The position numbers were made by a program, and so were the translations under genes. A stretch of DNA of 64,000 bases, from IMG/VR virus record IMGVR_UViG_3300021961_000050, positions 1 to 64,000 of that record. One strand, written 5' to 3'. This DNA comes from a virus. The notes beneath the pieces are model-generated. The model made no database searches, was not told where the DNA came from, and saw nothing but the letters and a program-made list of their open reading frames with translations. This document shows, piece by piece, positions 12,806 through 13,872 of the stretch (its first letter is position 1; each line of letters starts with the position of its first letter).

Positions 12806-13657
12806 ATGGAGAATTCAAATCAATCAAATCCATTGATGTCGCACTTTAGACAGCCTGCAATCTATTTAAAATTGCCATCTGAAGGTAGATATTGGGATAA
12901 TGATGCTGTAAACTTGCCCGTTAATGGTGAAGTACCAGTCTATCCAATGACTACCAAAGACGAAATCATGCTCAGAACACCAGATGCTCTACTAAACGGT
13001 GCTGGAGTGGTCAGTGTGATACAAAGTTGTATACCTGCTATCCAGGACGCATGGAAAATGCCCAGCATTGACGTAGACTCTTGCTTAATTGCTATACGTA
13101 TTGCTACCTATGGTAATGACATGGATGTTACTACAACTTGTCCAAATTGCAAACATGAAAATGATCATACTATTGACCTTGGACAAACTATGTCGCAGAT
13201 CAACATACCAGTTTATGATGTATTTGCCATTGGCGAAGGACTAGAGGCCAAGCTCAAACCTCAAAATTATTTTGAGATCAACCGCACAAATATGATTGGC
13301 TATGAAGAACAAAGAATGATGGCTGTGTTAGATAAACAAGATCTAACTCCAGAAGATAAAGAATCAGCAATTAGAGAAATTACCAGCAAATTAGTTGATC
13401 TGAACGTGCTAAATCTTGCTAGTAGCACAGACTACATTAAAACTTCAGACGGTACTTACGTAAACAACTTTGATCATATTAAAGAGTTTTATAGTAACAC
13501 TAGTAGTAAAATAATTCGCAAGGTACAGGATCATTTGGTAAAACTTGCAGAACAATCAGGACTTCCGCCTTATCCAACCAAGTGTGTAGAATGTACTACA
13601 GAATATAGTACGGAGGTTACATTCGACTACGCAAGTTTTTTCGTCAACGGCTCTTAG
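12806..13657 (+). CDS. 26: Baseplate hub / tail chaperone-type protein, gp26-like
   Basis: 283 residues from the ATG at 12806; an upstream in-frame TTG at 12794 lies in the promoter zone and is unlikely. It matches the T4 baseplate gp26-type family by IYLKLPSEGRYW, VYPMTTKDEIMLRTPDALLN, and a long helix-rich middle. A two-part zinc ribbon is visible: CPNC in TTTCPNCKHEND and CVEC near the C-terminus. T4 gp26 is shorter (208) and acts in hub assembly. The frame closes four codons after a T_TTT_TTC heptamer, suggesting two products (see 13636-13642). It is divergent from the tape-measure gene, a usual neighbour of tail assembly chaperones. Confidence 0.75.
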   Translation: MENSNQSNPLMSHFRQPAIYLKLPSEGRYWDNDAVNLPVNGEVPVYPMTTKDEIMLRTPDALLNGAGVVSVIQSCIPAIQDAWKMPSIDVDSCLIAIRIATYGNDMDVTTTCPNCKHENDHTIDLGQTMSQINIPVYDVFAIGEGLEAKLKPQNYFEINRTNMIGYEEQRMMAVLDKQDLTPEDKESAIREITSKLVDLNVLNLASSTDYIKTSDGTYVNNFDHIKEFYSNTSSKIIRKVQDHLVKLAEQSGLPPYPTKCVECTTEYSTEVTFDYASFFVNGS

Positions 13658-13872
13658 CACTCAGTGACGAGGAGGTTGCAAGCCTAATCAACCGACTCGA
13701 GAAAGAGGTAAGAGCCATACAAGACGAAACTATTAGGTTATGTTGGTACATGCGAGGTTCAATCAGTTATTCTGATGGTATGTTACTGTCACGATCTGAA
13801 AAAGAAATTATTGATCGTATAATTAAAGAAAATTTAGAAACTACCAAAAAAACCAGACTACCATTCTTCTAG
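13621..13872 (+). CDS. Second cistron or frameshift extension of gp26
   Basis: An open frame from 13609 to 13872 reads RQRLLALSDEEVASLINR, then an acidic/basic helix, WYMRGSISYSDGMLLSRSEK, and ends KKTRLPFF. I believe similar small proteins follow gp26 in T4-like marine phages, but cannot name a function. There is no ATG, GTG or TTG before the conserved part; the first ATG (13750) would remove half of it. Two routes are possible: a -1 slip at 13636-13642 giving a gp26 fusion, or an ATT start at 13621 placed four bases after GGAGG. Coordinates here use the ATT. Confidence 0.6.
   Translation: MRLRKFFRQRLLALSDEEVASLINRLEKEVRAIQDETIRLCWYMRGSISYSDGMLLSRSEKEIIDRIIKENLETTKKTRLPFF
13636..13642 (+). 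promoter_or_regulatory. Candidate programmed -1 ribosomal frameshift site
   Basis: The heptamer T TTT TTC is in the frame needed for a -1 slip (gp26 codons AGT TTT TTC GTC). After a -1 shift the ribosome reads CGT CAA CGG CTC TTA and enters a 76-codon open frame to a TAG at 13870-13872, giving about 355 residues. Without the slip only VNGS follows before the stop. A GGAGG lies at 13612-13616, about 20 bases upstream, and could act as a stimulatory Shine-Dalgarno element. No convincing downstream structure was found by eye. Confidence 0.6.

What the first reader, a model, noticed from the sequence alone, without database searches (positions are those of the whole stretch)
13606..13872. Candidate programmed -1 frameshift joining gp26-like protein to a 76-codon extension
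A canonical slippery heptamer T_TTT_TTC is in register; the zero frame ends four codons later. The -1 frame lacks any standard start upstream of conserved-looking sequence and continues 76 codons to LPFF. A GGAGG about 20 bases upstream could stimulate slippage. The gene borders the tape-measure gene, as do the frameshifted tail assembly chaperones of lambda and P2. I know of no report of this for gp26-like genes.
Basis: partly seen in the sequence, partly recalled or inferred. Interest (0 to 1): 0.75.

Follow-up and report, generated by a model that had tools for sequence, protein, structure and literature searches.

The report
Frameshifted tail assembly chaperone gene
This phage gene makes a short and a long version of a tail-building helper protein because some ribosomes slip back one base near its end; the trick is known from related phages, but here it is shown to be conserved in a large marine/jumbo-phage lineage and to come with a conserved RNA hairpin.

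Summary
T_TTT_TTC (13636-13642) lies in register in a gp26-like gene (PF12322, 12806-13657). The zero frame stops four codons later; the -1 frame runs 76 codons to 13872 with no usable start. Comparative evidence for programmed -1 frameshifting is very strong. All 80 IMG/VR relatives and 18 distinct phages examined keep the heptamer at the same Phe-Phe codons with a coding -1 extension. I also found a covarying 8-bp stem starting 6 nt after the heptamer, the probable stimulator. The product is best read as the tail assembly chaperone pair: a short gp26-like and a long gp51-like form. T4 gp26 and gp51 are both PF12322 proteins, and gp51 carries an extension resembling the -1 frame of cyanophages and KVP40. 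T4 thus encodes as two genes what these phages encode as one. This kind was already reported for T4-like phages (Vladimirov et al. 2022, known here only through citing papers), so "no report" is wrong. What may be new is this jumbo/IMG-VR branch, the conserved hairpin and the systematic misannotation of the extension. Frameshifting itself has not been demonstrated experimentally.

The parts
12806..13657 (+). Zero-frame ORF, 283 aa: short chaperone form (TAC-N, gp26-like, PF12322), with CPNC and CVEC cysteine pairs
   Evidence: PF12322 E 2.8e-15; phrog_150 baseplate hub E 1.2e-18; model pLDDT 85.8 matches T4-like baseplate hub assembly proteins in BFVD, best E 1.4e-23
13636..13642 (+). Slippery heptamer T_TTT_TTC
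   Evidence: In register; identical in 80/80 IMG/VR loci and in 17 other named or IMG/VR relatives
13642..13872 (+). -1 frame extension (76 aa + stop) forming the C-terminal part of the long form, join(12806..13642,13642..13872), 355 aa
   Evidence: Codon-position variability 0.37/0.21/0.57 shows it is coding in this frame; invariant FFR...W.MRG...Y; no start codon before it; predicted helical
13649..13656 (+). 5' arm of the downstream stem (GGCTCTTA), 6 nt after the heptamer
   Evidence: z -4.12 in window; 8-bp helix with covariation
13709..13716 (+). 3' arm of the stem (TAAGAGCC)
13655..13657 (+). Zero-frame stop TAG, at the end of the 5' arm of the stem
10595..12739 (-). Neighbouring divergent gene, 714 aa, probable tail tape measure protein
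   Evidence: Same divergent position as in RaK2 (annotated similar to a tape measure protein), PA5oct, BF, GAP32, CBB, 121Q; own profile matches weak, so identity is inferred
13612..13616 (+).
   Evidence: SD-like motif upstream in 5/58 relatives, background 6.7%

Best explanation
The locus encodes a tail assembly chaperone in two lengths. Most ribosomes read the zero frame and make the 283-aa short form. A minority slip back one base on T_TTT_TTC, helped by an RNA stem starting 6 nt downstream, and continue in the -1 frame to make a 355-aa long form. By analogy with lambda gpG/gpGT, the shared N-terminal part would coat the tape measure protein and the extension of the long form would recruit tail tube or hub proteins. 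T4 provides the same two forms from two paralogous genes: gp26 (short) and gp51 (long). Shown here: sequence layout, conservation, -1 coding, covarying stem, shared family of gp26 and gp51. Inferred: the slippage itself and its ratio, the stem's stimulating action, binding to the tape measure, the role of the extension.
For: Same heptamer and -1 extension in 80/80 IMG/VR loci and in 18 distinct phages, window included, incl. Phosso, Atu_ph07, PA5oct, RaK2, SCTP-2, GAP32, CBB, 121Q. Preceding codon always ends in T although the residue varies. The -1 frame usually has a stop 9 nt upstream of the heptamer, and many loci lack any start for 30 codons. -1 frame codon-position pattern. Downstream structure: mean z -3.40 against -0.43 to +0.14 at four control offsets; 8-bp stem, 91.6% of cells paired, 6 of 8 pairs with double changes, covariation 0.307 against 0.166 shuffled, 0/500; synonymous Leu third bases follow amino-acid-changing bases in the other arm. 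S-PM2, P-SSM2, KVP40, HTVC008M and phiM12 have one PF12322 gene ending in the same T_TTT_TTY plus a -1 extension; the profile of those extensions finds T4 gp51 (E 2.7e-7 single target). T4 gp26 and gp51 both score PF12322 (8.8e-64, 3.9e-52), and T4 gene 26 has no heptamer. In PA5oct the flanking gp334 and gp335 carry virion-MS notes but gp336 does not.
Against: No proteomic, ribosome-profiling or reporter evidence. RNAalifold predicted no consensus structure on the same alignment. Five or six of 49 relatives lack the stem, and the RaK2-like phages show no clear downstream hairpin. Homology of this branch's extension to those of the cyanophages is only moderate (hhalign E 5.5e-4 single comparison, probability 30%). 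Some relatives have an ATG close to the heptamer, so coupled initiation is not excluded for them.
Confidence: 0.93

Rival explanations
1. The -1 ORF is a separate gene translated by coupled re-initiation near the zero-frame stop, as S-PM2's gp51 is annotated.
For: In S-PM2, gp51 is annotated as its own 57-aa gene starting at an ATG just after the gp26 stop; Phosso, Atu_ph07, 121Q and KVP40 also have a nearby ATG.
Against: The window and many relatives have no ATG/GTG/TTG within 30 codons. An exact in-register heptamer and a downstream stem are not needed for re-initiation. Conserved FFR.RLL lies before any possible start.
Confidence: 0.04
2. RNA polymerase slippage on the T run makes a mixed mRNA population that encodes the long form.
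For: A run of six T at the junction.
Against: Six T is short for transcriptional slippage (general knowledge); the invariant C after the run, the exact tRNA register and the 6-nt-spaced stem fit ribosomal slippage.
Confidence: 0.02
3. Sequencing error or gene decay split one long gene.
For: Two adjacent frames encode one protein family.
Against: The same layout is found independently in about 100 genomes or contigs, isolates included.
Confidence: 0.005

Closest known systems
[quoted passage not shown]
   Same: gp26-family short form and a longer form with a C-terminal extension; poly-T -1 slippery signal in T4-like phages (as stated by citing papers PMC12846349 and PMC10885494)
   Different: The window's lineage is distant from T4 and cyanophages (PF12322 E 2.8e-15); its chaperone gene is divergent from the tape measure gene; it has a conserved stem of its own. 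The paper was not held, so which groups it covers was not checked.
Lambda gpG/gpGT and P2-type tail assembly chaperones
   Different: No sequence relation tested or seen; different slippery sequence; opposite orientation to the tape measure gene here
T4 gp26 and gp51 (hub assembly chaperones)
   Same: Both belong to PF12322, and gp51 has the extra C-terminal part
   Different: Two separate genes without a frameshift in T4
Vandenendeviridae/Andersonviridae chaperone frameshift (PMC12846349)
   Same: Poly-T -1 site at the 3' end of TAC-N
   Different: GTTTTT motif, other phage families

Membership tests
Programmed -1 ribosomal frameshift site | X_XXY_YYZ heptamer in the zero frame shortly before the stop | tested here: met
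Programmed -1 ribosomal frameshift site | Overlapping -1 frame under protein-coding constraint | tested here: met
   codon-position variability 0.37/0.21/0.57; alignment A4
Programmed -1 ribosomal frameshift site | RNA structure 5-9 nt downstream of the heptamer | tested here: met
   stem at 6 nt, covariation; absent in RaK2-like relatives; stimulating action not tested
Programmed -1 ribosomal frameshift site | Upstream Shine-Dalgarno-like stimulator (optional feature) | tested here: not met
   not conserved
Programmed -1 ribosomal frameshift site | Frameshift product detected | not testable with these tools
   needs reporter or proteomics
Tail assembly chaperone (G/GT type) | Short and long forms sharing the N-terminal part | tested here: met
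   predicted 283- and 355-aa forms
Tail assembly chaperone (G/GT type) | Gene next to the tape measure gene | tested here: inconclusive
   adjacent and divergent; tape measure identity inferred
Tail assembly chaperone (G/GT type) | Absent from the mature virion | tested here: inconclusive
   PA5oct gp336 lacks the MS note that its neighbours carry; CBB neighbours are listed, CBB_249 not
Tail assembly chaperone (G/GT type) | Binds the tape measure protein | not testable with these tools
   none
T4 gp26/gp51 family (PF12322) | Score above the Pfam gathering cut-off | tested here: met
   57 bits against 24.5
T4 gp26/gp51 family (PF12322) | Extension homologous to the gp51 C-terminus | tested here: inconclusive
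   T4-like -1 extensions find gp51 (2.7e-7); this branch's extension aligns only weakly to them

The most novel reading that the evidence does not exclude
The chaperone frameshift of the jumbo/RaK2-related and IMG/VR lineages, with a conserved covarying hairpin 6 nt after T_TTT_TTC and a chaperone gene transcribed away from the tape measure gene, is undescribed. The hairpin was lost or replaced in the RaK2-like branch, so the short-to-long ratio may be tuned differently among lineages.
Probability: 0.55. Interest if true: 0.4.

Novelty: new member of a known kind. Interest (0 to 1): 0.36.

Why it matters
It extends the tail-assembly-chaperone frameshift, once said to be conserved in long-tailed phages 'except T4' (PMC5009743), to a broad jumbo-phage lineage, and supports T4 gp26/gp51 being the split version of one frameshifted gene. 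It corrects annotation: in the records read here the extension is a hypothetical protein with an arbitrary start, or is missed. The conserved stem gives a concrete, testable stimulator.

Tried and rejected
GGAGG as stimulator: not conserved. RNAalifold consensus: no pairs predicted, although direct pair counting shows strong covariation. Foldseek of the extension against viral models: nothing. PDB sequence and fold searches with the gp26-like part: nothing useful, and none for T4 gp51. PHROGs/Pfam for the 76-aa extension: no family. Transcriptional slippage and sequencing error: rejected on conservation. Reading the 2022 paper: not held.

Full report
What is there. The gp26-like ORF 12806-13657 ends ...GAC TAC GCA AGT TTT TTC GTC AAC GGC TCT TAG. 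T_TTT_TTC lies at 13636-13642 in register. Slipping back one base gives ...YASFF-RQRLLALSDEEV...LPFF, 76 codons to 13872, total 355 aa. The -1 frame has no ATG/GTG/TTG until 114 nt after the heptamer start. The zero-frame protein is a PF12322 member. Its predicted structure matches T4-like baseplate hub assembly proteins. The extension has no family and is predicted to be helical.

Conservation. Four distinct IMG/VR-type sequences, window included, and 14 distinct named phages keep T_TTT_TTC at the same two Phe codons, with a -1 extension of 69-77 aa and a zero-frame stop 1-11 codons later. Stenotrophomonas RAS14 has T_TTT_TTT. A profile scan of IMG/VR returned 80 loci (a few of them contigs already met), and all 80 have T_TTT_TTC in register. 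In 58 distinct ones the preceding codon is AAT, AGT, ACT, GCT or CAT, always ending in T. The synonymous null gives about 10^-59 for the exact heptamer and 10^-21 for any T_TTT_TTY, without correction for shared descent. Variability by -1 codon position is 0.37/0.21/0.57, as expected of a coding frame.

Stimulator. Directly downstream, however, the RNA folds far better than shuffled sequence: mean z -3.40, 78% of 58 below -2, against means from -0.43 to +0.14 at four control offsets; window z -4.12. An 8-bp stem (window 13649-13656 with 13709-13716) starts 6 nt after the heptamer. On 49 ungapped sequences 91.6% of cells pair, six of eight pairs show changes on both sides, and the covariation score is 0.307 against 0.166 +/- 0.014 shuffled; slid versions pair at 29-61%. 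At columns 18/77 (UA 22, CG 21) and 21/74 (GC 30, AU 17) a silent third base of a Leu codon follows an amino-acid-changing base in the other arm, which protein coding alone does not explain. RNAalifold did not call it, and five or six sequences lack it. Phosso and Atu_ph07 share the stem. PA5oct, S-PM2, P-SSM2, KVP40 and phiM12 have other strong hairpins at this place. The RaK2-like phages and HTVC008M show no clear one.

Relation to T4. PF12322 occurs twice in T4 (gp26, gp51) but once in S-PM2, P-SSM2, HTVC008M, phiM12, KVP40, PA5oct, RaK2 and the window's own 88-kb record. The five T4-like single-copy genes end in T_TTT_TTC or T_TTT_TTT with a -1 extension, whose profile finds T4 gp51 (E 2.7e-7 for one target). 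The window branch's extension aligns to these only weakly (E 5.5e-4, probability 30%). T4 gene 26 has no heptamer, and gp51 is read through in one frame. So T4 appears to encode as two genes what the others encode as one frameshifted gene.

What was known. [quoted passage not shown] I could not read it. Citing papers say that some T4-like phages carry a short gene and a long fused gene (PMC10885494) and that poly-T -1 signals are known in TAC-N genes of T4-like phages (PMC12846349). My own recollection, unverified, is that its abstract names genes 26 and 51. The finding is therefore a new member of a known kind. I found no report of it for the RaK2-like or window lineage in the held library, but that library lacks most subscription journals.

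Function. In lambda the short form coats the tape measure protein and the long form links it to the tube protein (PMC5009743). Here this is by analogy. The neighbouring 714-aa gene is probably the tape measure but is transcribed away from the chaperone gene. In PA5oct the flanking proteins carry virion MS notes and the gp26-like one does not, consistent with a chaperone that leaves the particle.

Noticed in passing
L027 (LR756508.1, uncultured jumbo phage), about 2700-2950: gp26-like gene without the Phe-Phe heptamer; an extension-like ORF lies in the +1 frame and has an ATG. Separate gene or +1 shift, not resolved.
   Followed up: partly
L025 (Stenotrophomonas phage RAS14), 2760-2810: Heptamer variant T_TTT_TTT with a -1 extension.
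   Followed up: partly
S-PM2 record AJ630128 151190-151363 (L044 2191-2364): Annotated as a separate 57-aa gp51; probably the -1 extension of gp26.
   Followed up: yes
window 13880-13897: Hairpin TGTGGC-ATAAAA-GCCACA just after the -1 stop.
   Followed up: no
window 55516: A_AAA_AAC one codon before the stop of ORF 55145-55528; the next gene has its own ATG at 55528, so probably an ordinary overlap.
   Followed up: partly
window 33612-47159: Very large ORF of 4515 aa in the tail/baseplate region.
   Followed up: no
window 16267-17370 and 20824-22110: Two proteins with radical-SAM-like cysteine motifs (by eye) between structural and recombination genes.
   Followed up: no
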